From contig PAPN01000023.1 in the NCBI GenBank assembly GCA_002708925.1, forward strand, positions 1-37,803: a stretch of 37,803 nucleotides of DNA, written 5' to 3'. Position 1 is the stretch's first letter. Each line of letters opens with the position of its first letter. A model generated the notes under the pieces. The model was not told the origin of the DNA. It made no database searches and saw only the letters and a program-made list of their open reading frames with translations. Both the position numbers and the translations under genes were made by a program. Below are positions 4,446 to 36,004 of this stretch, one piece after another. The stretch is from Paracoccaceae bacterium (GTDB taxonomy: Bacteria > Pseudomonadota > Alphaproteobacteria > Rhodobacterales > Rhodobacteraceae).

Positions 4446-4584
4446 GTTTTCATCGAAAAAGCGGATCACGCCGCCAATTCGCATAAAGAGACGCCTGTTT
4501 GATCGGCTTTTGCCCAAAACCGCGCCATATCTCGGGGATAGTTTCCGTTTTTCTGGATCATGAGGAATTCCAAAGGACTTGATG

Positions 4585-5478: not shown

Positions 5479-5487
5479 GGACGTTCC

Positions 5488-8210: not shown

Positions 8211-8215
8211 GGGGG

Positions 8216-9058
8216 ATGATCCTGGTCTTTGGGAAAACCGGGCAGGTGGCGCGGGAATTGGCGCGGGCCTGTCCTGAGGCGGTGTTTCTGGGGCGCGCCG
8301 AGGCGGATTTATGCGATCCTGCGGGATGTGCGGCGCATATACGGGCGTTGCGCCCCAGTGCGGTGATTAATGCGGCGGCCTATACGGCGGTGGACCGGGC
8401 TGAGGCGGAAGAGGATTTGGCGCAGGTGGTGAATGGCGCGGCACCGGGCGCGATGGCGCGGGCCTGTGCGGAATTGGATGTACCGTTTTTGCATGTCTCC
8501 ACCGATTATGTGTTTGATGGGTCGGGGGTGCGGCCTTGGGCGCCGGGGGATGCGGTGCATCCGGTGAATGCCTATGGGCGGTCCAAGCTGGCGGGCGAGC
8601 GGGCGATTGCGCAGGCCGGGGGGCGTTGGGCTGTGTTGCGGACGTCTTGGGTGTTTTCGGCCCATGGGGCGAATTTCGTGAAAACCATGTTGCGCCTGTC
8701 CGAGAGCCGCGACGCGCTGAGCGTGGTAGCCGATCAGATCGGCGGGCCGACGCCGGCGCGGGGGATTGCGCAGGCTTTGGTGCAGATGGCCTAGGCGATG
8801 AGCGCGGGGCAGGGCGGTGGAATTTACCATTACGCCGGGGCCCCCGCCACCAGCTGGGCCTGTTTCGCGCGCGAAACATTTGCCTTGGCCGGGCGGGATG
8901 TGACGGTGACGGATATTCCCAGCGCGGACTATCCGACGCCGGCGGCGCGGCCCTTGAATTCCCGGCTGGAGTGCCGCGCAATAGAGACAGATTTCGGGAT
9001 AGAACAGCCCGATTGGAAGGCCGCTTTGGCCGAGGTGATACACGAGGTGAGCGCATGA
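8216..9058 (+). pseudogene. rfbD: dTDP-4-dehydrorhamnose reductase, interrupted by an in-frame TAG
   Basis: The frame encodes the last enzyme of dTDP-L-rhamnose synthesis, an NADPH-dependent reductase. The start MILVFGKTGQVAREL, the NAAAYTAVDRAE block, STDYVFDG, and the YxxxK pair (Y120, K124 in YGRSK) are all present. At codon 193 (8792-8794) the reading frame has TAG. Eighty-seven more residues continue in the same frame with family-typical sequence, GGIYHYAGAPATSW and ending before rfbA. There is no shift, just one stop. The truncated 192-residue product would lose the C-terminal substrate-binding part. ATG 8798 could restart the tail. Either this is a real nonsense mutation, a suppressed codon, or a sequencing error. 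A parS-like palindrome sits in the tail at 8861-8878. Confidence 0.85.
8861..8878. other. parS-like palindrome inside rfbD
   Basis: TGTTTCGCGCGCGAAACA is a perfect 18-bp palindrome, identical to copies at 10462 and 11622 beside parB. It lies in the reading frame of the rfbD tail, encoding CFARET, so the coding sequence tolerates a ParB site. The outer arms TGTTTC and GAAACA are those of the canonical chromosomal parS, but the centre is GCGCGC (6 bp) rather than ACGT (4 bp). Confidence 0.75.
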
Positions 9059-9924
9059 AACGCAAAGGCATTATTCTGGCGGGCGGCTCGGGGACGCGGC
9101 TCTATCCGATCACCATGGGCGTGTCCAAACAGCTGTTGCCGGTCTATGACAAGCCGATGATTTTCTATCCTCTGTCGGTGCTGATGCTGTCGGGGATTCA
9201 AGAGATCGCGGTGATCACCACGCCGCAGGATCAGGCGCAATTTCAGCGCACTTTGGGGAACGGCAGCCAATGGGGGCTGAGCCTGACCTATATCACCCAG
9301 CCCAGCCCCGACGGGCTGGCGCAGGCCTATATCCTGGCCGAGGATTTCCTGAACGGCGCCCCCAGCGCGATGGTGCTGGGCGACAATATCTTTTTCGGTC
9401 ACGGGCTGCCCGAGCGCCTGGCCGCCGCAGATGCACAGGGGCAGGGGGGCACGGTCTTTGGCTATCGTGTCGCCGATCCGGAACGCTATGGCGTGGTGGA
9501 TTTCGCCGAAGATGGTACCGTGCGCCAGATCATCGAAAAACCACAGGTCGCGCCCTCGCCCTATGCCGTCACCGGGCTCTATTTTCTGGATGGCAGCGCG
9601 CCGCAGCGGGCGCAGGCGGTGACGCCCTCGGCGCGCGGAGAGCTGGAGATCGTGACCCTGCTGGAAAGCTATCTGGCCGATGGTTTGCTGAATGTGCAGC
9701 AGATGGGGCGCGGTTATGCCTGGCTGGACACTGGCACCCATGCCAGCCTGCTGGACGCGGGCAATTTCGTGCGCACCCTGTCCGAACGGCAGGGCCAGCA
9801 GGTGGGCTGCCCCGAGGAAATCGCCTATGCCAAGGGCTGGATTAATGCCGATCAGCTGCGCGCCCGTGCGGAACAATTCGGGAAAAACGGCTACGGCGCC
9901 TATTTGATGAGGCTTTTAGACTAA
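9055..9924 (+). CDS. rfbA: Glucose-1-phosphate thymidylyltransferase
   Basis: This 289-residue enzyme makes dTDP-glucose, the first step toward dTDP-L-rhamnose. The nucleotidyltransferase signature GGSGTRLYP is at residues 10-18, and GVSKQLLPVYDKPMIFYPLS follows at once. LGDNIFFGHG holds the metal-binding aspartate D110, and VEFAEDG-like and EKP blocks follow. The start is ATG 9055 with GAGGTG five bases before it; it overlaps the rfbD stop (ATGA at 9055-9058). The intact rfbA and translational coupling argue that the operon is still expressed despite the rfbD stop. Confidence 0.97.
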   Translation: MKRKGIILAGGSGTRLYPITMGVSKQLLPVYDKPMIFYPLSVLMLSGIQEIAVITTPQDQAQFQRTLGNGSQWGLSLTYITQPSPDGLAQAYILAEDFLNGAPSAMVLGDNIFFGHGLPERLAAADAQGQGGTVFGYRVADPERYGVVDFAEDGTVRQIIEKPQVAPSPYAVTGLYFLDGSAPQRAQAVTPSARGELEIVTLLESYLADGLLNVQQMGRGYAWLDTGTHASLLDAGNFVRTLSERQGQQVGCPEEIAYAKGWINADQLRARAEQFGKNGYGAYLMRLLD

Positions 9925-10502: not shown

Positions 10503-11546
10503 CTATTTTTGCGCGGAACGCTCGGCCAGCCAGGCGATCAGATCGTCGGCCAGGTTCTCATCCACCGCCGCACCCTTGATCGTCAGCCGTCCGCCCTTGG
10601 GATTGGTGATGTCATGGCGCACCACATGCAGGCCCGCGTGGATCTGACGGGTAAAATTCGTCTCTGATCCGCGTTTTGGGGTCTGATTTTTAATCTTTGT
10701 CTCCGCCTTGGCAGCGGCCGCGATCTCGGACAGGGCGGCGTTGATCCGGTCCAGCTCGTCCAGCGGGGTCTGAGGCGGATCGGCCTGGATATGCGCCGCG
10801 ATCCGGCGGGCAATCGCGGGGGCTTGATCCAGCTCTCGGGCCAGGATCAGACCGGCGCGTTCGCCGATGGATTCAGGGAAATGCAGCACGCCATCCAGAT
10901 GTTTGACCAACGTCAGAAAGCTGCCGATTTTTGACCGTTTGGCGCGGCTTGCGGCGTGATAGAGACTGCGTAGCGCGCTGCGCTCGTCGGGGTAAACGCC
11001 TTGTTCCACCGCGCGAGCGGCGATGCGGGCGCGTTCATAATAGCTCAGCCCGACACGGATTTCGTTTTCCTCGACCATGGCCAGATAGGCATCGGACGCC
11101 TGTTCGGGCTGGCGCAAAAAGGCCAGGATCTGCGGCTGCGCCTCGCCGGTTTCAGCCAGGCGGGTGATCGCGCGCAGACGCCGCCACCCCGAGATCAGCC
11201 CATAGCGGCCACCTGGCAGAGGGGCGACCTCGATCGGAGTTTGCTGCCCACGTTGACGGATCGAGGCGATCAGCACCTCCATCTCACCCTCATCCACATT
11301 GATCCGGTCGCGCACCAGATAATCGGTGACGATCTGATCCAGCGGCAGCTCCAGCGCCATGCGGCCCTCTTCGCGGGCGCGGCGCAGGGTGTCGGACATT
11401 TCCTCGAGCGCGGCGGTGGTGCTGGCATGGCCCGCGACATCGGCAATGGGGGGCGCGCGACGCGGCGGTTCGGGTAGGATCGCAGAGGGCGCCGGCGTAT
11501 CCAGATAATCGGTTTTCGGGGGCGCAAGGCGTTTGCGTTTGGCCAT
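10503..11546 (-). CDS. parB: ParB-family partition protein (centromere-binding)
   Basis: This 347-residue ParB-like protein has the N-terminal ParB/Srx domain at about 63-165, including GQQTPIEVAP (100-109) and LISGWRRLRA (117-126), the nucleotide-binding and clamp-forming region. A helix-turn-helix region follows (ALRSLYHAASRAKRSKIGSFLTLVKHLDGVL). A charged linker leads to a small C-terminal domain. The ATG at 11546 follows AGGAGA (11560-11555). It lies downstream of parA on the same strand, 107 bases apart, with parS-like palindromes on both sides. It would bind those sites and, with ParA, segregate the replicon. Confidence 0.93.
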   Translation of the reverse strand: MAKRKRLAPPKTDYLDTPAPSAILPEPPRRAPPIADVAGHASTTAALEEMSDTLRRAREEGRMALELPLDQIVTDYLVRDRINVDEGEMEVLIASIRQRGQQTPIEVAPLPGGRYGLISGWRRLRAITRLAETGEAQPQILAFLRQPEQASDAYLAMVEENEIRVGLSYYERARIAARAVEQGVYPDERSALRSLYHAASRAKRSKIGSFLTLVKHLDGVLHFPESIGERAGLILARELDQAPAIARRIAAHIQADPPQTPLDELDRINAALSEIAAAAKAETKIKNQTPKRGSETNFTRQIHAGLHVVRHDITNPKGGRLTIKGAAVDENLADDLIAWLAERSAQK

Positions 11547-11621
11547 GGCTCAGGTCTCCTGTCGTGTGCGGGGCAGGGTGGGGCGGTCTGATAAACAGAG
11601 CCTAACCCGGCCGAACGCTGC

Positions 11622-11639
11622 TGTTTCGCGCGCGAAACA
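11622..11639. other. parS-like palindrome between parA and parB
   Basis: TGTTTCGCGCGCGAAACA, perfect 18 bp, in the 107-base parA-parB spacer. The same sequence lies beyond parB at 10462. Placement within the partition operon is typical of plasmid centromeres. Confidence 0.85.
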
Positions 11640-11653
11640 TTTGAGGCGGGGGC

Positions 11654-13045
11654 TCACTCGGCCGCCTGTTGTTGGGCCAGCTCATCGCGGCGCCAGGCCC
11701 CGATCAGCAGGGATTTGAACGCGGCATAGGTGGCATCAAAAGTCTCGCGCCCGCGGGCATAGGTTTCGCGGTTGAAGTCGCGATAGTCAGCCTCGTAGAT
11801 GCCCTGAACCTGCTCGCCGGCCTGACCGATCAGAGCGGTGAAATCCTGCCGATGCGGAGACAGGGTGGGCCCCAGATAGGCCTGCATCAGCGCGGCCAGC
11901 TCGGCCTGTTGGCTGCCATCATAGCGGGTGATCACCGCGCGCACCGCGTCCCATTCGAAATTCAGCTCATCCCGGCCCAGGGCGCGGGCGGCCAGGTTCT
12001 CGCCGTCCTCGATGGATTGAAAGGTGGTGTGCAGCATGTCGAAAAACCGGCCCGTGGAATCGAATTCCAGAAACGAGGCCCCCAGCGGCACCAGCAGAAT
12101 ATCGCTGGCCGCCAGCCCGTTGATCGTCAGATAGCCCAGGGCGGGGGGGGTATCGACGAAAATCACGTCATACTGATCCAGAATGCCGTCGGCCTCCAGA
12201 CTGTCGGTCAGCGCATCCCACAGTTTCCAGCCGCGCCCCTGCATCCGCCAAACGGGGATCTGGAACTCGGCCCAATACAGATTCAGCTGCGCGCCGATCA
12301 GATCAATATTGGGCCAATGGGTGGGCTGGATCAGCGACCGGGCGGTGACATCCAAAGCGGCGCTCAGCGTGTCGTCCAGCGGAATGGGGGGCTCGCCCCG
12401 GTCCAGCCGGCGCTGATTATCGCTGCGCAGATAGCTGGCGTAATGACGCGCCAGAAGGGGGAAAACGGTCTGCCATTCATCCTCGACCCGCCCGCCGAAA
12501 ATGGACGTCATGGACCCCTGACTGTCCAGATCAATCACCAGCACCTTATAGCCGTCCAACGCGGCGGACATGGCCAGATGCGCGGCGGTCGAGGTCTTGC
12601 CGACCCCGCCCTTGAAATTGGCCACGGCGACCATTTTGGCGGGCTGGCCCTTGGGGCGATAGGGCAGGTAGTTTTTCGCCTTGGACCCTTCGGCGGCGAA
12701 ATGGGCGCGCAGGCGCAGCACCTCGTCCAGAGTGAACCATTTCGCCCCCCCGGCGGTTTCCGAACGCCCCTGTGGCAGATCGGGCTTCTGTTTCAGCACG
12801 CGGCGGAAATGGCCCTGGGCGACGGGGATCAGATAGCGGGTGATCTCCCATGTGGAAAACAGGCGCAGATGGCGGTCGCCGTCGTCCTCTAATCCGCGGC
12901 TGGCCAGATCCGAACGCCCGCGGGCACAGGCCTGAGAAATGGCGGCAAACCCTTCGGTGCCGGTAGGATTGCCCAAAGCGGACAAGGCCTGGTCGGGATC
13001 AATGTTGAAGTAGGGGGGCAGGGCGGATGTCACTGCGGATGTCAT
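11654..13045 (-). CDS. parA: ParA-family partition ATPase
   Basis: This 463-residue protein carries the deviant Walker A motif KGGVGKTS near residues 145-152, VLVIDLDSQGSMT after it, and the Walker B-like VIFVDTPPALGYL. The N-terminal extension of about 140 residues (ITRYLIP, WFTLDEVLRLRAHF) resembles the DNA-binding N-terminus of plasmid-type ParA that autoregulates the par operon. I chose ATG 13045, with GAGG eight bases upstream; the in-frame ATG at 13099 has no good ribosome site. It would use ATP to position ParB-parS complexes. It diverges from repA across the origin region. Confidence 0.92.
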   Translation of the reverse strand: MTSAVTSALPPYFNIDPDQALSALGNPTGTEGFAAISQACARGRSDLASRGLEDDGDRHLRLFSTWEITRYLIPVAQGHFRRVLKQKPDLPQGRSETAGGAKWFTLDEVLRLRAHFAAEGSKAKNYLPYRPKGQPAKMVAVANFKGGVGKTSTAAHLAMSAALDGYKVLVIDLDSQGSMTSIFGGRVEDEWQTVFPLLARHYASYLRSDNQRRLDRGEPPIPLDDTLSAALDVTARSLIQPTHWPNIDLIGAQLNLYWAEFQIPVWRMQGRGWKLWDALTDSLEADGILDQYDVIFVDTPPALGYLTINGLAASDILLVPLGASFLEFDSTGRFFDMLHTTFQSIEDGENLAARALGRDELNFEWDAVRAVITRYDGSQQAELAALMQAYLGPTLSPHRQDFTALIGQAGEQVQGIYEADYRDFNRETYARGRETFDATYAAFKSLLIGAWRRDELAQQQAAE

Positions 13046-13288
13046 GGCTCGGGCCTCATGTGCGCTCTTTTCCTTAACATACGGGAAAACGTCACACATG
13101 GAAGCAAAACCCTCACCTCCCTTGGCTATTTCTTAGCATAATTGCCCCGGTTTTTGCAGGAAAATCAGGCTGGATAGGGGGGAAGAGCAAAAATTTCCTG
13201 TTAGGATTCTGTTAGTTTATAGTTACAGGTAAGATGAGATTTGCTTAAGGCCCTGATTTCCAAGATGTTTTGGATTTGATTTTGGCCC

Positions 13289-13420
13289 GGTGCGACTCTG
13301 AAACCCCGAAAAGGCGACTCTGATCCGACGCAGGTGCGACTCTGATCCCCCGATGCGAGGGGCGCTGAGGGCTGGACGCGTTCTGTGGATAACTTTAGGG
13401 TGTCACTGAAACCCCGAAAA
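13289..13420 (+). repeat. Iteron-like direct repeats upstream of repA
   Basis: Four related units are visible. Units at 13289 and 13333 begin GGTGCGACTCTGA; 13313 begins GGCGACTCTGA; 13399 begins GGTGTCACTGA. The first and fourth continue AAACCCCGAAAA, while the second and third continue TCC. The core GCGACTCTGA occurs three times within about 60 bases. Spacing is 20-24 bases between the first three, about two helical turns. The last unit is degenerate and overlaps a hairpin, so it may be a repA operator. Confidence 0.7.
13384..13392 (-). other. DnaA box
   Basis: TGTGGATAA on the plus strand is the reverse complement of TTATCCACA, a perfect consensus DnaA box. It lies among the repeats about 75 bases before repA. 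Confidence 0.75.
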
Positions 13421-13466
13421 ACGGGGACACGAGCAGAGCAGATAAAATGCGACAGGACAGGCACGC

Positions 13467-14498
13467 ATGACAGGGGCCATGACAGCAGGGCAGGGGGGGC
13501 TTTTGCCCGACCGCCACCCAACGGGCGACATGTTCGTCTGCGATATTTTCGAGGCCAGCCCCAAGGACGATCTGGGCTCGATGGAGCATCCGATTTTCTC
13601 ACTGTCCACGCGGCCGGACCGGCGCATTCTGAACTATGCCCATAATGGGGTGCAGGTGCAGGTCACGCCCTCGGTGCGGGGGCGGGCGACGATCCACGAT
13701 AAGGACATCCTGATCTATTGCATCAGCCAGCTGGTGGCGGCGCTGAATGCAGGGCGCGAAATCTCTCGGACGCTGCAACTGAAGGCGCATGATCTGCTGG
13801 TGGCCACCAATCGCGACACCGGCGGCGACAGCTATGCCCGCCTGCGCGAGGCCTTTGAACGCCTGGCCGGCACGCGCATCACCACCAATCTGGAAACCGG
13901 CGGGCAAGAGGTGACCAGCGGTTTCGGCCTGATCGAGCGCTGGGAAATCATCCGCAAATCGCGCGGGGGGCGGATGGTCAGGGTCTCGGTTCCCCTGTCT
14001 GAATGGCTGTACCGGGCGGTGCTGTCGAAATCGGTGCTGACGCTGAACCGCGCCTATTTCCGCCTGCGCAAACCGCTGGAGCGGCGAATCTACGAATTGG
14101 CGCGCAAACATTGCGGCCGCCAGCCCGAATGGCAGGGCAGCCTGGCGACTTTGCACAAGAAGGCCGGATCCACCGCGCCTTTGCGGGTGTTTCGCGCGGC
14201 GGTGCGCAAGATCATCGCCGCCGGCACCCTGCCCGATTACGACATGGCCGAGGAACCGGGCGATCTGATCGCCTTTACCCGGCAGGGGCATGTGGTGTCC
14301 GGGGCCGGCCCCGCCGAGGGCCCGCAGCTGAGCCCCGCCGCGCTGGAGCGCGCGCGGCAGATGGCGCCGGGCGCGGATGTCTATGCGCTGGAGGCCGAAT
14401 GGCGCGCCTTCTGGGCCAGCGCCGGGCGGGTGCGCCTGCACGCGCCGGATAAGGCTTTTCTGGCCTGGCTGACCAGCCGCCTCGCGCGTGGGTTGTAA
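13467..14498 (+). CDS. repA: Plasmid replication initiator RepA (RPA family)
   Basis: This 343-residue protein matches the replication initiator A family used by RepA-type plasmids of Rhodobacteraceae. Family-typical blocks are MEHPIFSLSTRPDRRILNYAHNG, RATIHDKDILIYCISQL, and LSEWLYRAVLSK followed by LNRAYFRLRKPLERRIYELARKHCG, a winged-helix region. It would bind the repeats just upstream and recruit host DnaA and helicase. The ATG at 13467 is the first of two close candidates (13479 is the other). The gene is intact, and it diverges from parA across the origin. No repB- or repC-type initiator is seen. Confidence 0.9.
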   Translation: MTGAMTAGQGGLLPDRHPTGDMFVCDIFEASPKDDLGSMEHPIFSLSTRPDRRILNYAHNGVQVQVTPSVRGRATIHDKDILIYCISQLVAALNAGREISRTLQLKAHDLLVATNRDTGGDSYARLREAFERLAGTRITTNLETGGQEVTSGFGLIERWEIIRKSRGGRMVRVSVPLSEWLYRAVLSKSVLTLNRAYFRLRKPLERRIYELARKHCGRQPEWQGSLATLHKKAGSTAPLRVFRAAVRKIIAAGTLPDYDMAEEPGDLIAFTRQGHVVSGAGPAEGPQLSPAALERARQMAPGADVYALEAEWRAFWASAGRVRLHAPDKAFLAWLTSRLARGL

Positions 14499-24267: not shown

Positions 24268-25455
<1,188 letters not shown>

Positions 25456-26290: not shown

Positions 26291-27178
26291 TCAGTCCAGC
26301 AGGGCCGCATAGGGCCAGATCTTGCGAATGAACGCATCTCCGAACCGATCCGCACAATATTCATAGGCCCCGCGGTAATGCTCGGCCACGCCCCTAAGCG
26401 CCTGGGGGTCGGGGTTGTCGGTCTTGGGCGAGGCATTGGATTTCGCGTTCAGATTGGCATCCTGGCGGCGAATGCCCAGGAAATCGCAAATCGCATCGAC
26501 ATGAGACTGATCGAACAGGGTCTCATAGAATCCATAGTGAATGTCCTCGGCGGGGAACACGCGCTCCAGCTTGGGCAGGATCACATCGTATTTGGTGCGC
26601 TTTTCCTGCCAGTCGGCCTTGGCGCTTTTGCCGAAGTTCTGGCGCGCGCGCTCATAGGCCTCGGGGGTGCCAAAGGTATTGCGAACCCCCATCCGCAGCG
26701 CCGAATAGCACCGATCTACCGGGTCACGCATCAGGAACACCACCTTGATCCGGTATCCCCGTGCCTCCAGCGCGTCGCGCAGGCGCCGGAACCGGGTTTC
26801 CTCCAGGCCCGAATAGGCGGGGGTGATTTCCCCGGTCAGCGATGCGTTCGGATTCTGCGCGACCACCCGGTCGAAATAGGACAGGTAGTGCGGCAGCCCC
26901 ATGGTGGCCGAGACCGCATCCATCGCCCGTTCGAAGGCCCGGTTGGCCTGGGCGCGGTCCTGCGCGTCCGCCCCGGTCAGGGCCTCGATGGCCTGTGTCA
27001 GGGTCTCTAACCGTTCCTGATGGATATTGGCGTTCTCGGCCCGTTCCGACAGGGTGGGAAAGGCGTGGAGTTCCTTGATCGGCCCGATGGCGCAGTCGGG
27101 ATGGTGGCGCAGAAATTCATGCAGCCAAGTTGTGCCAGCTTTTTGGGCACCCACACCCAACAGAAAAGTCTTTGTCAT
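26291..27178 (-). CDS. PAPS-dependent sulfotransferase-domain protein
   Basis: This 295-residue protein has a clear sulfotransferase domain. The 5'-phosphosulfate loop is GAQKAGTTWLHEFL near residues 9-22, and the 3'-phosphate region is VVFLMRDPVDRCYSALRMGVR near the middle, which is the expected RDPxxRxxS pattern. The C-terminal FYETLFDQSHVDAICDFLGI block is also family-like. ATG 27178 follows GGGAGT about 9 bases upstream. It converges on the short sulfotransferase-like gene, with only 6 bases between them, and diverges from the giant glycosyltransferase. Sulfation of the surface glycan is the likely role. Confidence 0.88.
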   Translation of the reverse strand: MTKTFLLGVGAQKAGTTWLHEFLRHHPDCAIGPIKELHAFPTLSERAENANIHQERLETLTQAIEALTGADAQDRAQANRAFERAMDAVSATMGLPHYLSYFDRVVAQNPNASLTGEITPAYSGLEETRFRRLRDALEARGYRIKVVFLMRDPVDRCYSALRMGVRNTFGTPEAYERARQNFGKSAKADWQEKRTKYDVILPKLERVFPAEDIHYGFYETLFDQSHVDAICDFLGIRRQDANLNAKSNASPKTDNPDPQALRGVAEHYRGAYEYCADRFGDAFIRKIWPYAALLD

Positions 27179-27431
27179 TCTATATGACTCCCAAAATGAG
27201 TCCCAAGCACGCATCGTTGCGAACCTCTGCCCGTCGGCGGGGGAAAAGCCCCGGAAATCCGCACGGATTTCGCGATATCGGGATTGGTATAAAACGAGAG
27301 GGATAGAGGTACAATTGAATTGCACCCCGTCCCCCCGGTCCGGCCCCGCCTGTGTAACGGGCATAAAAGCGGGGCGTTGATGCTGTTGCTCTGGTTTCCA
27401 AGAGATGGGACAGCTAGAACGGGACGATAGA

Positions 27432-27437
27432 TATAAT
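27432..27437 (+). promoter_or_regulatory. Perfect -10 box just before the giant glycosyltransferase
   Basis: TATAAT lies only 14 bases before the GTG start at 27452. A poor -35 (GGGACA, 27407-27412) is 19 bases upstream. Transcription from here would give a leader of only about 7 bases, which agrees with the lack of any ribosome binding site. Confidence 0.4.
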
Positions 27438-27451
27438 AACGGCGTTTTCTT

Positions 27452-30400
27452 GTGAGCTTTCCTCTGATCTCGATCATTCTGCCTGTGTATAATGTGCAGG
27501 ATCACGTGGCGGCCTGCATCACCAGCCTGCGGGCGCAGACCTTGACGGATTTTCAGGTGCTGCTGATTGACGATGGTTCAACCGATGACAGCGCGCGCCG
27601 TGCCCGTGCCGCCATTGGCGAGGATCCGCGGTTTCAGGTGATTTCTCAGGATAACCGGGGCCTGTCAGGGGCGCGCAATGCCGGTCTGGATCTGGCACAG
27701 GGAGAGTATATCGCCTTTCTGGACAGCGATGACCGTTTCGCCCCGCAGTTTCTGGAACATATGCTGCGTGCGCTGACGGGCAGCGGGGCCGATTGGGTGG
27801 CCTGCGGGATTCAGTTCTGTTTTCCCGATGGAGCCAGCACGCGGCATTCGGCCATTCACGGGCGGGCGGCGCAGCACAGCTCGGGGCGGGTGACGCGGTT
27901 TGATCTGTCCGACTGGGGCCAGGCGATCCGGCATTTCCCCTCGGCTTGGAACAAGCTTTACCGGCGCTCTTTGATCGAGGGGCTGCGCTTCCCTGAAGGC
28001 ACCTGGTTCGAGGATCACGGGTTTTTCTATCGCGCCGCCGCGCGCACCGATCATATCGTGCATCTGGCGGAACCGCTGTATCTGCAAACCCGAGGCCGCG
28101 CCGGACAGATCACCGGCCGTGACGATGACCGGGTGTTCGAACAGTTCGATGTGCTTGAGGATATGCGCGCCCTGATGCAGGGGCACCATTCCGGCGGCCC
28201 CGCCGCCTTTGAGAAAATCGCCACCCGGCTGCTGTTCGAACGCTCGACCGCGCTGCGCGATCCCCAGCGGCGCGCGCGCTATGCCCGGGCCTGTGCCGCC
28301 TATCTGGAACAGCACGGCCTAAGCTATCGCCCAGATTGGGATCCGCATATCTCGCGCGCCTGGGCGTTGGAAATGGCCGGCGACATCCCGCTAAGCGTGA
28401 TCATTCCCTGGTCGGGTCAGGCCCTCGATCTGCTGTTGGACAGTCTGCGCGCGCTGGCCGCCCAAGGCGCGCCCGGCCGGGAAGTCCTGATCGTCTGCGA
28501 TCGTGAAAACCTGGCGGATCAGGCTCGAAAACAGGCTCTGAATCACCTCAATGTGCGGGTTTTGGTGCAGCGCGGGCGCGGCGCGGGGGCGGCGCGTAAT
28601 GCCGGGCTGGACGCGGCGCAGGGGCGCTATGTCTGCTTTTTGGATGCCGGGGACCGGCTGGCCGAAATGGCGCTGCATGACTGGGTGGATGGCGCGATCG
28701 AGGCGCAGGCGGATATGGTGGTCTCGGCCTATCTGCAAGGGATCGGCACGGGCGATACCCATTGCGGTTTTGTCGATGAGGCCTCTGTTTCGCGCGCGAA
28801 ACTGACCGAGGGGCCCTTTGCCTTTACCCCCAAAGAGGCGCTTTTGCTGGATCCGCAGGTATCGGCCAAACTGTATCGCCGGGCCTTTGTGCAAGACGCA
28901 GGCATCCGGTTCGGCACAGGGGCCCTGCCCGGCTGGCAGATGGCGCTCAAGGCGGCTCTGGCGGCGAAAACGGCGCTGTATTTCCCCTGGGCGGGGGCCG
29001 AGATTCGCCAACGCCCATTGGCGCGGCACTCCGCCGGGCAGCTGGCGCGGGGCCTGGACCGGCTGGCCCGCAGCCTGACCCCCGATCAGGCCGCGCAATT
29101 GCCGCAAGGCTGGTGGCGGCAACTGTTTGCCCGCGCTTTGTGGCAGCAGTGGTCCCGCGCGGCGCCTGCACGCGCCCGGCCGGGCAAGGCTGTCTTTGCG
29201 GCCAGCGCAGGCTGGGCGGCCTTGTGGCGGGGCAAATCGCGCCATCGCACCCCGCTGGATCCCGGAATGGGCCCCCGGATCGAACAATTGCTAAGCCTGG
29301 AGGCCCTGCTCCGGCGGCGCCCGGCTCTGGCTTGCGCCTCGCAGGCGGATGCCGGCCCCGATGATGATCTTTCACAAACTCTGCAAGGAGCGAACATGCT
29401 GTCCTTTGCCGTGCAGGAAGGCGCGCGTCTGCGCTACCGGGCGGAATTCTCGGCCCATCCTTATGCCAATATCTCATTTTATGACGCAGAGCGGGAAAAT
29501 ATCCTGTTCCACCTGTCGCTGCGCCACGATGAATCCCGCGCGGTCTGCAACCGACGCGATGGCGAAACCTGGCGCCGCGAGATCGGCCGGGCGGTTCAGC
29601 TGCCGGCCGCAGGCGTGACGGTCGATATTCTGTTCACCCCTCCCGTTGTCACCGTGAAACTGGACGGCCGCCAGGTGTTTCGGTTCGGCAAGGGGCTGCG
29701 TCGGCCGTTTCCGCAGACGGGCCGGATTGCCTATGTGGATCTGCAAGGCGGGATCACGCCGGGCGGGGTGGATATCGACGATCTGGCGCGGGTTCCGGAC
29801 AATCGCCTATATCTGAACAGCCGGCTGGAACTGCGCGCGCATCTGCGCAACTTGCCCCCCGAAACCGAATTGCACATGCAGGTAAGCGAAACAAAAGAAG
29901 CGCTGCCGGTGATCGTGCAGCCTGCCGGGGACGGTCTGGAGCTGCGCGCCTTGTTGCCGGGCCGTGTCTGGGACACGGTGCCAGCGGATATGCCGCTGGA
30001 AATCGCGGTGATGCACGCAGATGGCCGTGCGGCCTGCCCGGCCCTGTCGCTGGACCGCGCCGCGCTGGCGCAGCGTATAGATCAGAGCCTGACCCGGCTG
30101 GATCTGCGCAATGATGCCCTGACGGCGATGCAGGTTCTGGAACATATCCGCTTTGCCGGGCTGCTGGCGCAATTGTCCCCGCAGGCGCGCAGCCGGCTCA
30201 GCACGGCGCAGCGGTTTTTCAAACTGGATGATTTCCTGCTGGGCACAGACGAGAAAGCCCCCGATCTCCCTCCTCCGCCGTCTGCCGACCCCGATCCGGT
30301 GGTCGTGGCTCAGGCGCGCTTTGGGCACAGGCTGCACGCGGATCCCGCTCTGGACCCGCTGGACCTGATCCAGAGCCTGACCTCGGATATGCCCCGCGAA

Positions 30401-33400
30401 AAGCGCCCCTATCTGTATCTGGCGCTGTGCGAATATTTCTGCGATCCGGCCCGCGACTTCGAGCCCTTCCATGCGCAGTTCATAGAAGAGGGCCATGGCG
30501 GCATTCTGGCCCCTGCCCCCGGCGATATATGGAAAAACTCGGCCCTGGTGCCGTTTTTGCTGCTGGAGGGCCGCTACAAAGAGCTGGGGGATATTCTGTG
30601 GCCTCTGACCGAACCCACCAAGGACTGGATCGTGACGCCCGCCATGGCCTGGGCGCTGCGCCGGGTGATCTGGGACACATCCCTGCCCGATGACACCCGC
30701 GAGGCGGTGCTCTATGCGGGGCTGGAACTGATCCGCCAGCAGGCCTGGAACTACTGGGGACGGGCCCATTGCGTGGCGCTGACCGGGGCGGCGGTGCAGG
30801 TGGTTTTGCATCGGGATCGCTTTGCCGATTACACGCATTCCACGATTCTACAGGTCCTGCGCGAGGCCTATGGCCTGTCGCGGCAATTCTGGCAGATGCT
30901 GGAGGAGGCGCTGGCCGGGGCTCCGATCCCCGAGGCGCTGGCCCCGGCCAAAGCCGCCTTTGATATCGTGGCGCGCGCGGCAAGCACCGGGCAGGCGGAT
31001 ATGCAGACCGAACAGGCGCTGGATCTGTTCACCCGCTACGGCACGGCCGATACGCTGCGCACCCGGCGCGAGGTGCTGGGCCCGGCCGCGCAATATCTGC
31101 CCCCGGACAGCCCGCCCGATGCCGCAAGCCTGACTCTGGCCGGGGTAGACCCGCAAGAGGCCGTCCTGCGCCACATGGCCTTTCCCGGCGCGGCGGCGGT
31201 GGGGCCGGATCTGGTGGCCCTGTCGGCCCGGACAGTGCCCCAGCTTTACCCCGATGTGCCCCGCGCGCCCTATTATGCGGCGCAATTGCGGGTCAGCCGC
31301 AGCATTCAGGCGCTGCTGACGCAAGACGCGCCGATTGAGCCGGCGCAGATCCACGCCCTGAAGGATGATCTGAAGCTCTTGTCCGGCGCGCGCGATCAGT
31401 TCCTGGGTTTGGGTCTTATTTTGGCTCTGATACGGGGGGTTTTGACCCTTGGCAGCCCCTCAGAGACCCATGGTGCGGCCCTCTCGGTGCTGGCCGAGAT
31501 GGCCCAGGACATCGACCCGCAGGATCATGAGGCCCTGCAACAGGCCCCTGCCCCGCGTCTGGCGCTGATGGCCTTGCGTCAGGTGCCCAAAGCGGATGGG
31601 GCCTTGGCGCTGATGGCCGGGCTTTTGCCGCAGACAGAGGACAGCTCTGGCGCCCTGCCCCCCTGCCCCGGCGGCCTGCGGCAATCGGCTCTTTATGATA
31701 CGATCGTCACGGTGTTTTCCTGTGTGCCGAACCTGACCACCCGCATCCCGCCGATGCGCGCCGGCTGGCTGACCCTGCTCAGCGCGCTGGACATTCCCTA
31801 TGTGATCGTGGTGGGCAATGGGAACGGCCGGATCGAGGGCGACGTGCTGCATGTGGACGCCCCCGACGATTACGAGGGGCTGCCGCAGAAAACCCTGGCC
31901 ACGCTGCGCTGGGTGCATGATCACACGCCCTATGCTCATATGCTGAAAATCGACGATGATTGCTTCCTCAATGTCGAGGAATTCTTCCACTCGCTCAGCT
32001 ATCGCAAGTTTGACTATTACGGCCGGGTGCTGACGCGCAACGCCGGCCAGACCGATCGCGCCTGGCATAACGAAAAATCCACGTCCCTGCGCGGGCGGCT
32101 GGAGCTGGATAAATCACCTGAACCCTCCACCTATACCGATGGGGGCTCGGGTTATGTGATCAGCCGCACCGCCATGGCCGCCGCGATTGACGCGATGAAC
32201 AGCCCCGAGGGGCAATATCTGATCCAGGTTTCGTTCATGGAGGATAAGATGCTGGGCGATCTGCTGGCCCTGCGCGGCATCCGCCCCGCGGACGAGGATT
32301 ACCGCATCGCCATCCGCCGCCGCACCTGGGGCAAGGCCCGCCCGGTATCGCGCTGGGTGAACAGTTTCGATGCCAGCCCCGCCGCGCCCGTCAAACTGGT
32401 GCATCTGGATGCGCATGACACGCAAATTCCGGCGATGGAGACCCTGAAAACCCCGATCCTGACGCCGAAAAAAATCTGGCCCAGCTATCAGGATGTGCAA
32501 CTGGTTTACCAAAGCAACGCGCTGGAGCTGATCAGCCCTCAGGATCGGCTGGACGCCGCCCGCGAGGCCGAGGTCGCCGTGGTCGCCTGCATGCGCAATG
32601 AGATGTTCATGCTGCCGCAATTCCTGGCCCATTACCGCAAGCTGGGCGTGACCAGTTTCATGATCGTGGACAACTGTTCAGATGACGGCACGCTGGAATA
32701 CCTGCTGGATCAGCCCGACGTGGCGCTGTTTTCCGTGGATACCGATTACAACCTGTCCTACTATGGTGTGGCCTGGCAGCAGGCGATGATGGCGGGGTTC
32801 CGTGTGGGCAAATGGTCTTTGGTGGCCGATGCGGATGAATTGCTGGTCTGGCAGGAGAATCAGACCCAAACCTTGCCCGATTTGCTGAAAACCGACGATT
32901 TCCAGGGCGTGGATGCGGCGCGGATTTTCATGCTGGATATGTACCCCAAGGGGTCCCTGTCAGAGGCCACATTCGAAACCGACCCCTTTGCCGAGGCCGG
33001 CTATGTTGATCGCGAACCCTTCCTGACGAATTGGACGGGGCGGGGGCCGTTCTCTAATATGCCCACCTGGACCAGCGCCCTGCGCCACCGGCTGATTGCC
33101 GGATCGCGCACCGATCTGTTCGTGGCGCAGAAAATCGCGCTGTTGAAATATCAGCCGTGGATGCGGGTCTCGGCCGGGCTGCATTTCCTGACCGATGTGC
33201 AGCTGTCATCGCGCGAGCTGCTGTTCGCCCATTTCAAATACAACGCCGATTTCCGCCGCAAAGCCCAGGCCGAGGTCGCCCGCGGGCAGCATTTCAACGA
33301 TGCCGAGGAATACCGCAAATACCTGGCGCTGATTTCCGAAGGGCGCGACGTGATCTATGAGGACGGCCTGTCCGTGCCCTGGACGCAAGCGCCGTTTGTT

Positions 33401-33421
33401 AAGGCATTGCTGCAGGAATAG
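27452..33421 (+). CDS. Giant multi-domain glycosyltransferase (GT2-GT2-galectin-like-GT31-like-GT92-like)
   Basis: This 1989-residue protein has several domains in series. Residues 5-230 are a GT2 domain (ISIILPVYNVQDH, LIDDGSTDDS, FLDSDDRF). Residues 313-450 are a second, degenerate GT2 domain (LSVIIPW, GAGAARNAGLDAAQG, FLDAGDRL). Residues about 649-750 look like a galectin fold (LRYRAEFSAHPYANISFYD, ILFHLSLRHD, CNRRDGETWRREIG). Residues about 880-1400 are helical and unrecognised. Residues about 1411-1610 resemble GT31/Fringe (KIDDDCF near 1500, GGSGYVISRTA, MEDKMLGDLLA). Residues about 1702-1900 resemble the GT92/Glyco_tranf_2_4 group (ACMRNEMFMLPQFLAHYRKL, DADELLVW). It overlaps the end of the convergent GT4 gene by 23 bases. 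It could build several linkages of one repeat unit; specificity is unknown. Confidence 0.85.
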   Translation: MSFPLISIILPVYNVQDHVAACITSLRAQTLTDFQVLLIDDGSTDDSARRARAAIGEDPRFQVISQDNRGLSGARNAGLDLAQGEYIAFLDSDDRFAPQFLEHMLRALTGSGADWVACGIQFCFPDGASTRHSAIHGRAAQHSSGRVTRFDLSDWGQAIRHFPSAWNKLYRRSLIEGLRFPEGTWFEDHGFFYRAAARTDHIVHLAEPLYLQTRGRAGQITGRDDDRVFEQFDVLEDMRALMQGHHSGGPAAFEKIATRLLFERSTALRDPQRRARYARACAAYLEQHGLSYRPDWDPHISRAWALEMAGDIPLSVIIPWSGQALDLLLDSLRALAAQGAPGREVLIVCDRENLADQARKQALNHLNVRVLVQRGRGAGAARNAGLDAAQGRYVCFLDAGDRLAEMALHDWVDGAIEAQADMVVSAYLQGIGTGDTHCGFVDEASVSRAKLTEGPFAFTPKEALLLDPQVSAKLYRRAFVQDAGIRFGTGALPGWQMALKAALAAKTALYFPWAGAEIRQRPLARHSAGQLARGLDRLARSLTPDQAAQLPQGWWRQLFARALWQQWSRAAPARARPGKAVFAASAGWAALWRGKSRHRTPLDPGMGPRIEQLLSLEALLRRRPALACASQADAGPDDDLSQTLQGANMLSFAVQEGARLRYRAEFSAHPYANISFYDAERENILFHLSLRHDESRAVCNRRDGETWRREIGRAVQLPAAGVTVDILFTPPVVTVKLDGRQVFRFGKGLRRPFPQTGRIAYVDLQGGITPGGVDIDDLARVPDNRLYLNSRLELRAHLRNLPPETELHMQVSETKEALPVIVQPAGDGLELRALLPGRVWDTVPADMPLEIAVMHADGRAACPALSLDRAALAQRIDQSLTRLDLRNDALTAMQVLEHIRFAGLLAQLSPQARSRLSTAQRFFKLDDFLLGTDEKAPDLPPPPSADPDPVVVAQARFGHRLHADPALDPLDLIQSLTSDMPREKRPYLYLALCEYFCDPARDFEPFHAQFIEEGHGGILAPAPGDIWKNSALVPFLLLEGRYKELGDILWPLTEPTKDWIVTPAMAWALRRVIWDTSLPDDTREAVLYAGLELIRQQAWNYWGRAHCVALTGAAVQVVLHRDRFADYTHSTILQVLREAYGLSRQFWQMLEEALAGAPIPEALAPAKAAFDIVARAASTGQADMQTEQALDLFTRYGTADTLRTRREVLGPAAQYLPPDSPPDAASLTLAGVDPQEAVLRHMAFPGAAAVGPDLVALSARTVPQLYPDVPRAPYYAAQLRVSRSIQALLTQDAPIEPAQIHALKDDLKLLSGARDQFLGLGLILALIRGVLTLGSPSETHGAALSVLAEMAQDIDPQDHEALQQAPAPRLALMALRQVPKADGALALMAGLLPQTEDSSGALPPCPGGLRQSALYDTIVTVFSCVPNLTTRIPPMRAGWLTLLSALDIPYVIVVGNGNGRIEGDVLHVDAPDDYEGLPQKTLATLRWVHDHTPYAHMLKIDDDCFLNVEEFFHSLSYRKFDYYGRVLTRNAGQTDRAWHNEKSTSLRGRLELDKSPEPSTYTDGGSGYVISRTAMAAAIDAMNSPEGQYLIQVSFMEDKMLGDLLALRGIRPADEDYRIAIRRRTWGKARPVSRWVNSFDASPAAPVKLVHLDAHDTQIPAMETLKTPILTPKKIWPSYQDVQLVYQSNALELISPQDRLDAAREAEVAVVACMRNEMFMLPQFLAHYRKLGVTSFMIVDNCSDDGTLEYLLDQPDVALFSVDTDYNLSYYGVAWQQAMMAGFRVGKWSLVADADELLVWQENQTQTLPDLLKTDDFQGVDAARIFMLDMYPKGSLSEATFETDPFAEAGYVDREPFLTNWTGRGPFSNMPTWTSALRHRLIAGSRTDLFVAQKIALLKYQPWMRVSAGLHFLTDVQLSSRELLFAHFKYNADFRRKAQAEVARGQHFNDAEEYRKYLALISEGRDVIYEDGLSVPWTQAPFVKALLQE
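28786..28803. other. parS-like palindrome inside the giant glycosyltransferase gene (one mismatch)
   Basis: TGTTTCGCGCGCGAAACT differs from the other three copies only in its last base; the inner 16 bp are a perfect palindrome. It is in frame and encodes VSRAK in the second GT2 domain. It lies 17 kb from parB. Confidence 0.6.
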
Positions 33422-34916
33422 GGTCTGAAACAGGCTCTGATCCGGCGTAAACCGCGCGCAATTCATCCAGGTGCTGCGGCATCGACACCGGCGCGCGGGC
33501 CCCGGCCCAGTAGGCGGCCAGATCAATCTGCCCCGACAGGATGGCGCGCAGGCGGGCGTGGAAGGCCTCAACATCGCCGGCGCGGAACACCATTTGCGGG
33601 CAATGCGCCAATTCCTGCGCCCCGCCCAGATCGCTGGTCAGCAGCGGAATGTGCCGGGCGTGCATTTCAATCGCAACCTGAGGCAGGTTGTCATTCCACA
33701 GCACCGGGATGACGCCCAGATCCACGTTCTTCAGCAGATCATCCAGCCCGTCATGGGTATAGCCGTCGGCATAGCTGAGCCCGCCCAGACGCGCCCCCAG
33801 ATCCGAGAGCCTCTCTAACGTGCCGTCCTTGATATCGCGCGCGGCCACCACCAGGCGGATGCGTTTGGCCAGAGGCTCGGGCAGGGATTCCAGCGCCTCC
33901 AGCAGGAAAAAGAACCCCTTATCCCGGCGCATATAGCCCAGATAGGCCATGCTGAACGTGCCATCGGATTGCAGCAGGCTGGGCTTGGGCCGGGTGCGGG
34001 TGAAGCAATCGGCCTCGGCCGTGCCAATATACGAGGTCTTCAGCAGATCGCGCCGCACCCCAAAGCGCTCGGCAATATGGCCCACCGCATCCGAGACGCA
34101 CAGCACCCGGTCGCAATGATCGTTGATCATCTGCACCATCTGGGCGCGGCGCGCGGCAAAAGGCGTGCCGTCGGGGGCGCTGAGCGGGGCCAGACGGCCG
34201 GGTTTGGGCAGGGGCTTCCCCCCCCGCCGCAGCAGTTTCAGCCCCATGGCCACGCGCCGGCCCACCTTGATCGTGGGGCGGAACAGAGCCTCGAACGCTG
34301 TGGAGCCGGGCCGCAGCCCCGCAGATTTCAGATGATAAGCCAGCCCGTTGGCCAGTTTCAGCTGCTGCGCATTATGCGTATGGGGCAGGCAGTGGACGCA
34401 TGTGCGCCCCTGATCGAAATCCGTGCAGGTTTCGCGTTCCTGATGCCACAGGTTCACCTGCGGGCAGAACGGATAATAATTGTGCAGAGACAGGATCACG
34501 CGGGTATCGGGCCAGATGGATTTCAGATCCAGCGCCTGAACGGGCAGGCCTTCCAGATTGTTGAAATGCACCACGTCATAGGGGCCGGTGGCGTCGATGA
34601 AATCATGCAGCGCCCGCAAGGTCGCGTCATCGCGCAGCTGGCTGGCCTGACCAAAGGAATGATGCGCGGGCGACAGCACCCCCGAGTTGACGATCTCATA
34701 GCGGCGATGGCGGTCCTGGGCGGGCCCGTGGCGCATCTGTTCCCAGCGCGGCACCCGCCGCAGCAGATCATAGGAAATCCCCGAGGACAGAAAGGTGGCC
34801 TTGATCCCGTCCTGCCGGTCCAGTTCCTTCAGGACATTGCGCTGATACTGAGTCACCCCGCCGCCGCGGTTCTCGTCGTCCAGATAGTCGACCCAGTTAT
34901 AGTAGAGGATCCTCAT
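33399..34916 (-). CDS. Family 4 glycosyltransferase (GT-B fold)
   Basis: This 505-residue protein begins MRILYYNWVDYLDDENRGGG, a GT4-type N-terminus with a glycine-rich acceptor loop (GGGVTQYQRNV). DVVHFNNLEGLP and ILSLHNYYPFCPQ are typical of the N-terminal Rossmann domain, and a CxxC-like pair (TCVHCLPH) is present. The C-terminal domain has MAYLGYMRRDKGFFFLLEAL and the sugar-nucleotide-binding VIPVLWNDNLPQVAIEMHARHIPLL, whose E in place of ExxxxxE is partial. It overlaps the upstream sulfotransferase-like gene by four bases (ATGA) and is co-transcribed with it. Linkage is unknown. Confidence 0.88.
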   Translation of the reverse strand: MRILYYNWVDYLDDENRGGGVTQYQRNVLKELDRQDGIKATFLSSGISYDLLRRVPRWEQMRHGPAQDRHRRYEIVNSGVLSPAHHSFGQASQLRDDATLRALHDFIDATGPYDVVHFNNLEGLPVQALDLKSIWPDTRVILSLHNYYPFCPQVNLWHQERETCTDFDQGRTCVHCLPHTHNAQQLKLANGLAYHLKSAGLRPGSTAFEALFRPTIKVGRRVAMGLKLLRRGGKPLPKPGRLAPLSAPDGTPFAARRAQMVQMINDHCDRVLCVSDAVGHIAERFGVRRDLLKTSYIGTAEADCFTRTRPKPSLLQSDGTFSMAYLGYMRRDKGFFFLLEALESLPEPLAKRIRLVVAARDIKDGTLERLSDLGARLGGLSYADGYTHDGLDDLLKNVDLGVIPVLWNDNLPQVAIEMHARHIPLLTSDLGGAQELAHCPQMVFRAGDVEAFHARLRAILSGQIDLAAYWAGARAPVSMPQHLDELRAVYAGSEPVSDPIPAAMP

Positions 34917-36004
34917 TTCTTTGGCCTGGGGTCCAGGGCCAGGTGCTGCTCTAGCCGGTGCAGCCTGTCATGAAGACCTGCGTTTTCCTTGGTCATGCGC
35001 TGGCGCAGCGCGTGCAGCTCGTTCAGCAACATCCCGGTCATGTGCCAGATCTGGCGGTCGGTTTCCGGTTCGGGCCGGGGCAGATCCGCGCCCAAAGTCC
35101 CGACCAGATCGGGCCCGGCGCCGGGGATCAGGGCCTGGAGATTTTCCAACCCCGCAACCGCCTGGCTGCGGACCTGCGCGAAATCTCCGGCGGGCGCACC
35201 GGCGTCCTCTTGCTGCCGTTCGTTGAATTTCTGGCTCCGGATCACTGTCCAGTCGATGACATCCTTGGGGATGCCCGCATTCTGCATCATCCGCACCAGC
35301 TCCAGGGTGCTGTCATCCATGCGCGGGTTCGGATCGATCAGTGGCAGACTGACCCCGTCATCGGGCAGCTCAACCCCGAAGAGCGACAGGAAATCGCGAT
35401 AGAGACTGTCATCATGGCGGCTGGCTTCGTCATAAGAGCGCAGGATCAGCGCTTCGGGGCCGAAAATCTCGGCCCAGGGTTTCAGCGCCAGGGCGTAATC
35501 ATAGTGCACCGGCTCGATCACCTGGGTCACGGCCGTGTTGAAATCCGGCACCCTGACGCCCATTTTCACCAGCTGGTTATACCAGGACCGCAGATGGCTT
35601 GCGGGGGGGCGCAGATAGGCGATGACCCGGATCTGCAGATCCTGAGCATAGGTCGTCACGATGGATTTCAGCCGTTCTGCGGCCTCGGGGACATTACCCA
35701 GGCGCGCGAATTCCTCGGAGCTGACAATCATCCGGCCAGAGGGGCTGGTGCGGGTTTCGGCGAACAATTCCTGCCACAGGGTTTCAGGGGCAACGGGGTT
35801 ATCATAGCCATGCATCAGCCGGGTCACCCCTGCCGCCTTATAAAGCGCAAAAGCATAGATCGAGTGTTTGCCCAGATGGCGCCGCTGCGCACCATAGGCC
35901 AGATCATGATTGGCCAGGAATTCGGGATTGTTGGACAAAAGCGCCTGAAGCGCCGTCGTGCCGGTCTTGAAATGACCGATATGGAGATAGAGTGTCTTTG
36001 TCAT
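34913..36004 (-). CDS. Sulfotransferase-like protein with a coiled-coil tail
   Basis: This 363-residue protein opens MTKTLYLHIGHFKTGTTALQ, where GHFKTGTT is the phosphosulfate-type loop of sulfotransferases. The 3'-phosphate-type region is IRVIAYLRPPASHLRSWYNQLV. The last 60 residues (MTGMLLNELHALRQRM ... HDRLHRLEQHL) form a probable coiled coil. ATG 36004 follows AGGTGG by about 7 bases. It is the first gene of a two-gene unit with the GT4 gene (ATGA overlap), suggesting that one adds a sugar and the other a sulfate to the same glycan. Confidence 0.8.
   Translation of the reverse strand: MTKTLYLHIGHFKTGTTALQALLSNNPEFLANHDLAYGAQRRHLGKHSIYAFALYKAAGVTRLMHGYDNPVAPETLWQELFAETRTSPSGRMIVSSEEFARLGNVPEAAERLKSIVTTYAQDLQIRVIAYLRPPASHLRSWYNQLVKMGVRVPDFNTAVTQVIEPVHYDYALALKPWAEIFGPEALILRSYDEASRHDDSLYRDFLSLFGVELPDDGVSLPLIDPNPRMDDSTLELVRMMQNAGIPKDVIDWTVIRSQKFNERQQEDAGAPAGDFAQVRSQAVAGLENLQALIPGAGPDLVGTLGADLPRPEPETDRQIWHMTGMLLNELHALRQRMTKENAGLHDRLHRLEQHLALDPRPKK

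What the first reader, a model, noticed from the sequence alone, without database searches (positions are those of the whole stretch)
27452..33421. A 1989-residue glycosyltransferase with four transferase-like domains and an internal galectin-like domain
Two GT2 domains, a galectin-like fold, a long helical region, a GT31/Fringe-like domain and a GT92-like domain are joined in one frame. Bacterial GT2 fusions are known, but joining a sugar-binding galectin-like module to eukaryote-like GT31 and GT92-like domains is unusual. The galectin-like part could hold the growing glycan while successive domains add sugars, so the protein may act as a one-chain assembly line.
Basis: partly seen in the sequence, partly recalled or inferred. 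Interest (0 to 1): 0.85.

Follow-up and report, generated by a model that had tools for sequence, protein, structure and literature searches.

The report
Galectin-bearing bacterial sugar-chain enzyme
A giant marine-bacterial enzyme that seems to build a surface sugar chain carries, inside it, a genuine galectin, a sugar-gripping domain best known from animals, fungi and plants; a comparable pairing with a galactose-adding domain is known in plant cell-wall enzymes.

Summary

Corrections: the second GT2 has lost its metal-binding motif in 29 of 29 rows, so three transferases, not four, look active. In 13 of 34 orthologues the GT2 part is not in the same frame. Galectin plus GT31 is known from plants (GALT2-6).

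Orthologues lie in roseobacter polysaccharide loci (ABC export, sulfotransferases, often UDP-galactopyranose mutase), some on plasmids with rhamnose genes; the window also has galU and galE. Best reading: a cytoplasmic multi-transferase building part of a sulfated, galactose-containing surface polysaccharide, the galectin gripping the chain. In the genomes sampled, galectin matches fell only in glycosyltransferase loci, two of them a different GT2-GT25 protein. Gripping and assembly-line action are inferred.

The parts
27452..33421 (+). Whole gene, 1989 codons, GTG start
   Evidence: an identical copy on contig C60 of the same assembly lies in a 28,465-base stretch 99.9% identical to the window, most simply a redundant contig
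27452..28351 (+). GT2-A, residues about 1-300: looks catalytically intact (D40, D41, D91, D93, E187, D188)
   Evidence: Pfam PF00535; these residues kept in 28 or 29 of 29 rows
28388..29251 (+). GT2-B, residues about 313-600: degenerate, probably non-catalytic
   Evidence: PF00535 54.9 bits when scanned alone; third place of DxD is G in 29 of 29, the Asp of the ED pair in 0 of 29
29381..29788 (+). Galectin domain, residues 644-779
29510..29581 (+). Galectin sugar site, residues 687-710: H687, S689, R691, N700, W707, E710
   Evidence: 6 of the 7 invariant columns of the domain (136 columns, 25 rows); motif in 33 of 34 distinct orthologues that cover it
29813..31621 (+). Small beta part then a long all-helical region, residues about 788-1390; no known family
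   Evidence: AlphaFold secondary structure, mean pLDDT of the 612-1405 model 86.0; no Pfam match in the window row; no PDB sequence match; fold not searched alone
31664..32473 (+). GT31 domain, residues 1405-1674
32477..33388 (+). GT-A domain of Pfam PF13704, GT92-like by fold, residues 1676-1979
33402..34916 (-). GT4-type glycosyltransferase, convergent neighbour
   Evidence: Pfam; homologue in 20 of 25 related loci
34916..36004 (-). Sulfotransferase-like protein
   Evidence: PF13469 21.4 bits, under the cut-off of 27; homologue in 10 of 25 loci
26294..27505 (-). Sulfotransferase, divergent neighbour (its true start must lie further in, as the frame overlaps the big gene)
   Evidence: PF13469 53.1 bits
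25556..26281 (+). Stf0-like sulfotransferase, weak match
   Evidence: PF09037 20.4 bits, cut-off 22 (scanned from 25436); homologue in 10 of 25 loci
24307..25455 (+). glf, UDP-galactopyranose mutase
   Evidence: TIGR00031 304.0 bits, cut-off 303.75; homologue in 11 of 25 loci
4582..6471 (+). galU and galE (UDP-glucose to UDP-galactose)
   Evidence: TIGR01099 330.8 over 326.8; TIGR01179 413.6 over 262.3
6563..9924 (+). rmlC, rmlB, rmlD, rmlA (dTDP-rhamnose)
   Evidence: rmlD reading frame is short (profile 2-196 of 287)
10506..14498 (.). ParB-like, ParA-like and replication initiator protein A: plasmid replication and partition
   Evidence: PF02195 25.7 bits (cut-off 26.3), PF13614, PF10134 327 bits
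18394..19503 (-). Polysaccharide export protein
   Evidence: PF02563, SLBB; NCBIfam

Best explanation
It is a cytoplasmic multi-domain glycosyltransferase of a surface-polysaccharide locus carried on roseobacter plasmids and chromosomes. Three GT-A domains (GT2-A, GT31, GT92-like) look active and a fourth (GT2-B) serves as a dead structural or regulatory domain. The galectin binds a beta-galactoside in the growing chain and keeps it near the GT31 and GT92-like active sites, which most likely add galactose (pyranose or furanose). The product is sulfated and sent out by a KpsM/KpsT/KpsE-like ABC exporter. Shown by computation: domains, conserved site and catalytic residues, the locus. Inferred: cytoplasmic site, ligand, sugars, order of steps, holding role.
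For: Domains and folds. The galectin site is conserved while the domain drifts: 6 of 7 invariant columns out of 136 are signature residues, hypergeometric p 2.5e-8; motif in 33 of 34 distinct orthologues. GT31 and GT92-like catalytic-type residues in 25 of 25 rows; GT2-A residues in 28-29 of 29. No window of 19 residues looks like a membrane anchor (highest mean hydropathy 1.94, inside the helical region). Galectin and GT31 go together: 8 genomes with PF00337 and 9 with PF01762 among the same 295, the 8 lying within the 9, and the ninth (G163, L090) has the galectin motif. Locus: in 25 related loci GT4 in 20, ABC permease in 13, ATPase in 12, KpsE-like in 12, UDP-galactopyranose mutase in 11, at least one protein of a sulfotransferase-type cluster in 22. 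All 5 plasmids with the protein show GT, ABC permease, ABC ATPase, 'sugar transporter' and sulfotransferase in the part viewed. The window itself has galU, galE and glf over NCBIfam cut-offs.
Against: No biochemical data on any member were found in the searches made. In the galectin the recalled signature Asn is Ser in 25 of 25 and the last Arg is not kept (R in 3 of 25); one orthologue (Palleronia, L096) has a broken site. A paralogue in Thalassococcus S3 has GT31-like and PF13704 domains without galectin, and G055 has GT2 and PF13704 without galectin and GT31, so the galectin is dispensable in relatives. The window's own ABC permease match is weak (18.8 bits, cut-off 26.9), and no ATPase or KpsE-like gene was seen in the window genes scanned. 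GT31 domains add galactose, N-acetylglucosamine and other sugars (recalled), so galactose is a guess.
Confidence: 0.55

Rival explanations
1. The galectin fold is only a scaffold: it packs the domains together or binds a partner protein, and binds no sugar.
For: Signature Asn replaced by Ser in 25 of 25 rows and the last Arg lost; Palleronia protein has a broken site yet keeps GT31 and PF13704; the modelled placing of galectin against the helical region is uncertain (pTM 0.54).
Against: H, S, R, N, W, E are invariant in 25 of 25 while the rest drifts, which a mere scaffold would not need; the Toxascaris leonina galectin also has HxSxR at this place (alignment) and its structures include a glucose complex (title of 8zqi).
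Confidence: 0.25
2. The enzyme glycosylates secreted RTX-type proteins made next door instead of building a free polysaccharide.
For: RTX proteins lie in 10 of 25 related loci and twice in the window; the plant galectin-GT31 enzymes start protein O-glycans (passages of PMC8667403 and PMC4431829).
Against: Polysaccharide exporters are at least as common (ABC permease 13 of 25) and present in all 5 plasmids viewed; RTX proteins are absent from the fetched stretch of 15 of 25 loci.
Confidence: 0.1
3. The galectin and GT31 domains came as a pair from a plant or alga by gene transfer.
For: Plant GALT2-6 hold PF00337 then PF01762 (passages); in the family sample the two Pfam families occur in the same genomes.
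Against: In the plant proteins the two domains are close (GALT5: 194-392 and 465-672), here about 630 residues lie between; base composition is even over the gene (GC 0.60-0.68 by domain), so nothing recent; no plant sequence was at hand for a tree; a different galectin-GT2-GT25 protein exists in another alphaproteobacterial family.
Confidence: 0.12
4. The long frame is an assembly or chance artefact.
For: The assembly is 83% complete with 5% contamination and holds the region twice.
Against: Orthologues of the same order in independent cultured genomes and complete plasmids.
Confidence: 0.01

Closest known systems
Plant hydroxyproline galactosyltransferases GALT2-6 (and GALT1)
   Same: Galectin PF00337 plus GT31 PF01762 in one protein, galectin first; a holding role for the galectin has been suggested (passages of PMC8667403 and PMC4431829)
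   Different: The plant proteins are Golgi membrane proteins of up to 741 residues with one transferase domain; here no membrane anchor, a long helical insert, and further GT2 and GT92-like domains
Human B3GalT5/B3GalT6, B3GNT2, Manic Fringe (GT31)
   Same: Nearest solved folds and the only PDB sequence matches of the C-terminal profile (B3GalT6 E 2.4e-7, B3GalT5 1.9e-6)
   Different: About 20% identity; single-domain eukaryotic enzymes
GalS1, beta-1,4-galactan synthase of poplar (GT92; family and activity recalled)
   Different: 11% identity; PF01697 not reached; Pfam places the domain in PF13704
CHSY3-CHPF chondroitin synthase and E. coli K4 chondroitin polymerase
   Same: Two GT-A domains in tandem; CHSY3 has the best Foldseek E-value for the C-terminal model (2.0e-11)
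   Different: rmsd over 20 across both domains, so only the GT31 part and the tandem idea are alike; no galectin noted in those hits
[quoted passage not shown] 2016, seen only as a citation and in passages of other papers)
   Same: Window has replication initiator protein A, ParA/ParB-like genes and rml genes; three of five related plasmids show the same set in the part viewed
   Different: Replicon subtype not tested; the paper itself is not held

Membership tests
Galectin | Pfam PF00337 over its curated cut-off | tested here: met
   23.0 bits against 22.1, marginal for the single sequence; profile of 25 rows to solved galectins E 2.7e-16
Galectin | Galectin beta-sandwich fold | tested here: met
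Galectin | Core sugar-contacting residues H, R, N, W, E of the signature (signature recalled) | tested here: met
   Invariant in 25 of 25 rows; full motif in 33 of 34 distinct orthologues
Galectin | All eight recalled signature residues | tested here: inconclusive
   Asn is Ser in 25 of 25 and the last Arg is R in 3 of 25; a solved nematode galectin also has Ser there, so this alone does not define membership
Galectin | Affinity for beta-galactosides | not testable with these tools
   Needs a binding assay
GT31 | Pfam PF01762 over its cut-off | tested here: met
   45.1 bits against 23
GT31 | GT31 fold with DxD and acidic base (motifs recalled) | tested here: met
GT31 | Transfer of a sugar | not testable with these tools
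   Needs an assay
GT92 | Pfam PF01697 over its cut-off | tested here: not met
   12.3 bits (window) and 13.6-13.8 bits (L090) against 23; not filed as GT92
GT92 | GT92 fold (GalS1) | tested here: inconclusive
Active GT2, second domain | DxD and ED pair kept | tested here: not met
   G at the third DxD place in 29 of 29; Asp of the ED pair in 0 of 29, Glu in 2 of 29
Plant-type GALT (galectin plus GT31) | Both domains in one protein, galectin first | tested here: met
   plant layout from passages
Plant-type GALT (galectin plus GT31) | Common descent with the plant clade | not tested
   No plant sequences in the collections at hand; not filed as a member
ABC-exported polysaccharide locus | ABC permease, ATPase and KpsE-like protein near the gene | tested here: inconclusive
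   In relatives 13, 12 and 12 of 25 loci; in the window only a weak permease match (18.8 bits, cut-off 26.9)
Roseobacter biofilm plasmid | Replication initiator A and a rhamnose operon on one replicon | tested here: met
   Window 13467-14498 and 6563-9924, with a short rmlD frame; RepA-I subtype and biofilm role not tested

The most novel reading that the evidence does not exclude
Galectins have a bacterial life as built-in chain grips of multi-domain glycosyltransferases that build galactose-containing surface glycans in the cytoplasm. Evolution made this pairing at least twice in Alphaproteobacteria (GT2 / galectin / GT31 / GT92-like here; galectin / GT2 / GT25 elsewhere), in parallel with plant GALTs, so that galectin plus galactosyltransferase is a general solution for processive galactan building.
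Probability: 0.3. Interest if true: 0.78.

Novelty: new variant of a known kind. Interest (0 to 1): 0.62.

Why it matters
Galectins are studied as animal, fungal and plant-associated lectins. Finding them with an intact site inside bacterial polysaccharide enzymes gives a soluble, tractable system for an open question that the plant papers state themselves: what the galectin domain does in GALT2-6 (passage of PMC8667403). It also points to the chemistry of surface glycans encoded on plasmids of the kind tied to roseobacter attachment.

Tried and rejected
Rejected: four active transferases; a chance or assembly frame; a true gene duplication in this genome (the second copy lies in a 99.9% identical 28.5-kb stretch of contig C60, read as a redundant contig, though a real duplication is not strictly excluded); a recent transfer (even base composition).

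Led nowhere: the helical region has no Pfam match in the window row and only chance-level ones (E 0.14 and above) in one of three relatives scanned, and no PDB sequence match. The viral fold search gave many giant-virus and phage glycosyltransferases but nothing that settled the origin. Only B3GalT6 and B3GalT5 matched the C-terminal profile in the PDB by sequence. The key paper on biofilm plasmids is not held. A first script read the wrong record as the window and was redone. Nothing on a bacterial galectin-GT31 protein came up in searches; the library holds only open-licence PMC papers, and CAZy could not be searched. One phage tail fibre with a galectin-like domain is in print (passage of PMC11990801).

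Limits of the counts: genome samples overlap, so they cannot be added. One search leaves out the GT2 parts of L054, L059, L088 and L092, which fell under its score limit. Flanks of the 25 loci were at most 8 kb and some were cut, so neighbour counts are lower bounds. The direction of fusion or fission was not determined. The matching of GT2-B places to GT2-A catalytic places beyond residue 491 was extended by eye from the self-alignment.
Full report

Which parts look alive. In the galectin, 7 of 136 columns are invariant over 25 rows and 6 of these are signature sugar-contact places: H687, S689 (Asn in the recalled signature), R691, N700, W707, E710; hypergeometric p 2.5e-8; the last signature Arg is not kept. 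The motif is present in 33 of 34 distinct orthologues that cover it; the exception, Palleronia L096, has Gln for Arg and Arg for Glu. A background of 1810 other frames gave one match, and that was the galectin of a broken orthologue, L093. GT31 residues D1501-D1503, E1597, D1598 and last-domain residues D1793, D1795, E1796 are kept in 25 of 25 rows (L047, cut by its contig end, left out). GT2-A keeps D40 in 28 and D41, D91, D93, E187, D188 in 29 of 29. GT2-B has G at the third DxD place in 29 of 29, D at the first in 10, the ED pair's Asp in none and its Glu in 2; a D at the next place is kept in 25. So three transferases look active. GT2-B is also less conserved (38% against 64% mean identity to the window), while the GT31-GT92-like part is the most conserved (mean column identity 69%, against 35% for galectin plus helical region).

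Distribution. A scan of genome contigs gave 25 distinct loci, 41-68% identity in the best segment. On a tree of the GT31-GT92-like part with 34 rows, 21 have GT2 and galectin-GT31 in one frame and 13 do not. The label changes at least 4 times (starred branches force 4; 4-5 over bootstraps), and the window with its nearest relative L038 lies beside a split clade with starred support. In 12 of the 13 the GT2 part is a separate nearby gene, in L088 on the opposite strand; in L060 it was not in the fetched stretch. The stable unit is thus galectin-helical-GT31-GT92-like. Exceptions to that: a Thalassococcus S3 paralogue without galectin (GT31 match 20.0 bits, under the cut-off of 23) and G055 without galectin and GT31.

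Galectin in bacteria. PF00337 reached its cut-off in 8 of 295 genomes of the family, 1 of 299 and 2 of 369 of the phylum, 3 of 385 of the class and 2 of 4 of one other order; the samples overlap and hold 10 distinct positive genomes. Eight are this family of proteins, one of them (G280) with broken frames. PF01762 is over its cut-off in 9 of the same 295 genomes, including all 8 with galectin; the ninth, G163, has the galectin motif though PF00337 was not listed for it. The other two (G856, G929) carry a different protein of 1223-1282 residues: galectin, GT2 and GT25 (PF01755), whose galectin shows no BLASTP similarity to this one. PF01762 was in 1 of 200 phylum genomes, the window's own. In 72,556 plasmid records the galectin part matches 5, all this protein; the GT31 part matches 9, four of them distant Shinella and Paracoccus proteins.

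Surroundings. In the 25 loci (flanks up to 8 kb): GT4 in 20, ABC permease in 13, ATPase in 12, KpsE-like protein in 12 (197.7 bits to TIGR01010, under its cut-off of 437.5), another GT2 in 12, UDP-galactopyranose mutase in 11, RTX proteins in 10, and at least one protein of seven sulfotransferase-type clusters in 22, two of these clusters matching sulfotransferase models only under the cut-off. Five plasmids hold most of the protein: Tropicibacter oceani, Sulfitobacter D7 and W027, Thalassococcus S3 (split) and Palleronia LCG004. In the parts viewed all 5 show a glycosyltransferase, ABC permease, ABC ATPase, 'sugar transporter' and sulfotransferase; 4 show UDP-galactopyranose mutase, 4 show rfb genes, 3 show replication initiator protein A. 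The window shows galU, galE, glf and rmlA over NCBIfam cut-offs, further rml genes, a polysaccharide export protein, and plasmid replication and partition genes, but only a weak ABC permease match. Not all relatives are plasmid-borne: L043 lies on a 4.1-Mb scaffold.

Mechanism. Most likely the protein works in the cytoplasm: the highest 19-residue hydropathy mean is 1.94, inside the helical region. It adds two or three sugars to a glycan that is then sulfated and exported. The supply genes galU, galE and glf, a beta-galactoside lectin, a GT31 nearest to beta-1,3-galactosyltransferases and a domain nearest to a plant galactan synthase all point to galactose, but each pointer is by likeness. The galectin would hold the growing chain; the same idea is in print for plants as a possibility. 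That GT2 and galectin-GT31 parts are often separate genes says that covalent linkage of all domains is not needed, which weakens the 'one-chain' picture.

What is known. Plant GALT2-6 join galectin and GT31 (passages). Biofilm plasmids with rhamnose genes are known in roseobacters (passages). Eight paper searches found no bacterial galectin-GT31 protein, in an open-licence library only. I therefore rate it a new variant of a known kind, with a real and testable surprise in the bacterial galectin.

Noticed in passing
L099:7475-11143 (+) and L100:4686-8531 (+): A second bacterial galectin protein in another alphaproteobacterial family: galectin, GT2 and GT25 in one frame of 1223-1282 residues, with site H-x-A-x-R..N..W..E.
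   Followed up: partly
window 8129-8971: The rmlD frame ends early (profile positions 2-196 of 287); a frameshift, true or from assembly, is possible. The C60 copy starts at window 9335 and does not cover it.
   Followed up: no
window 9335-37799: The window contig C23 repeats 28,465 bases of contig C60 at 99.9% identity; C7 and C22 also match the first 5 kb at 99.97% and 97%. The assembly looks strain-redundant.
   Followed up: partly
window 37560-37803: A direct repeat of about 135-139 bases at 93% identity at the window's end, within a frame with weak coiled-coil matches; a likely cause of the contig break.
   Followed up: no
window 15195-17378 and 19676-22195: Two RTX calcium-binding proteins, one with metallopeptidase-type matches, next to the polysaccharide genes.
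   Followed up: no
window 22315-23084; L038:4701-5786 (-): Small proteins with DUF4376 and a DUF2793 protein travel with several of these loci; the window's 711-residue DUF2793 frame overlaps glf on the other strand.
   Followed up: no
L085:39016-42630 (-): Thalassococcus S3 has a second, galectin-free relative with helical region, GT31-like and PF13704 domains.
   Followed up: partly
L083:18246-20000 (-): Beyond the window on C60, a frame with GT47 exostosin and GT10 fucosyltransferase matches, more eukaryote-like glycosyltransferases on the same replicon, with GDP-fucose genes nearby.
   Followed up: no
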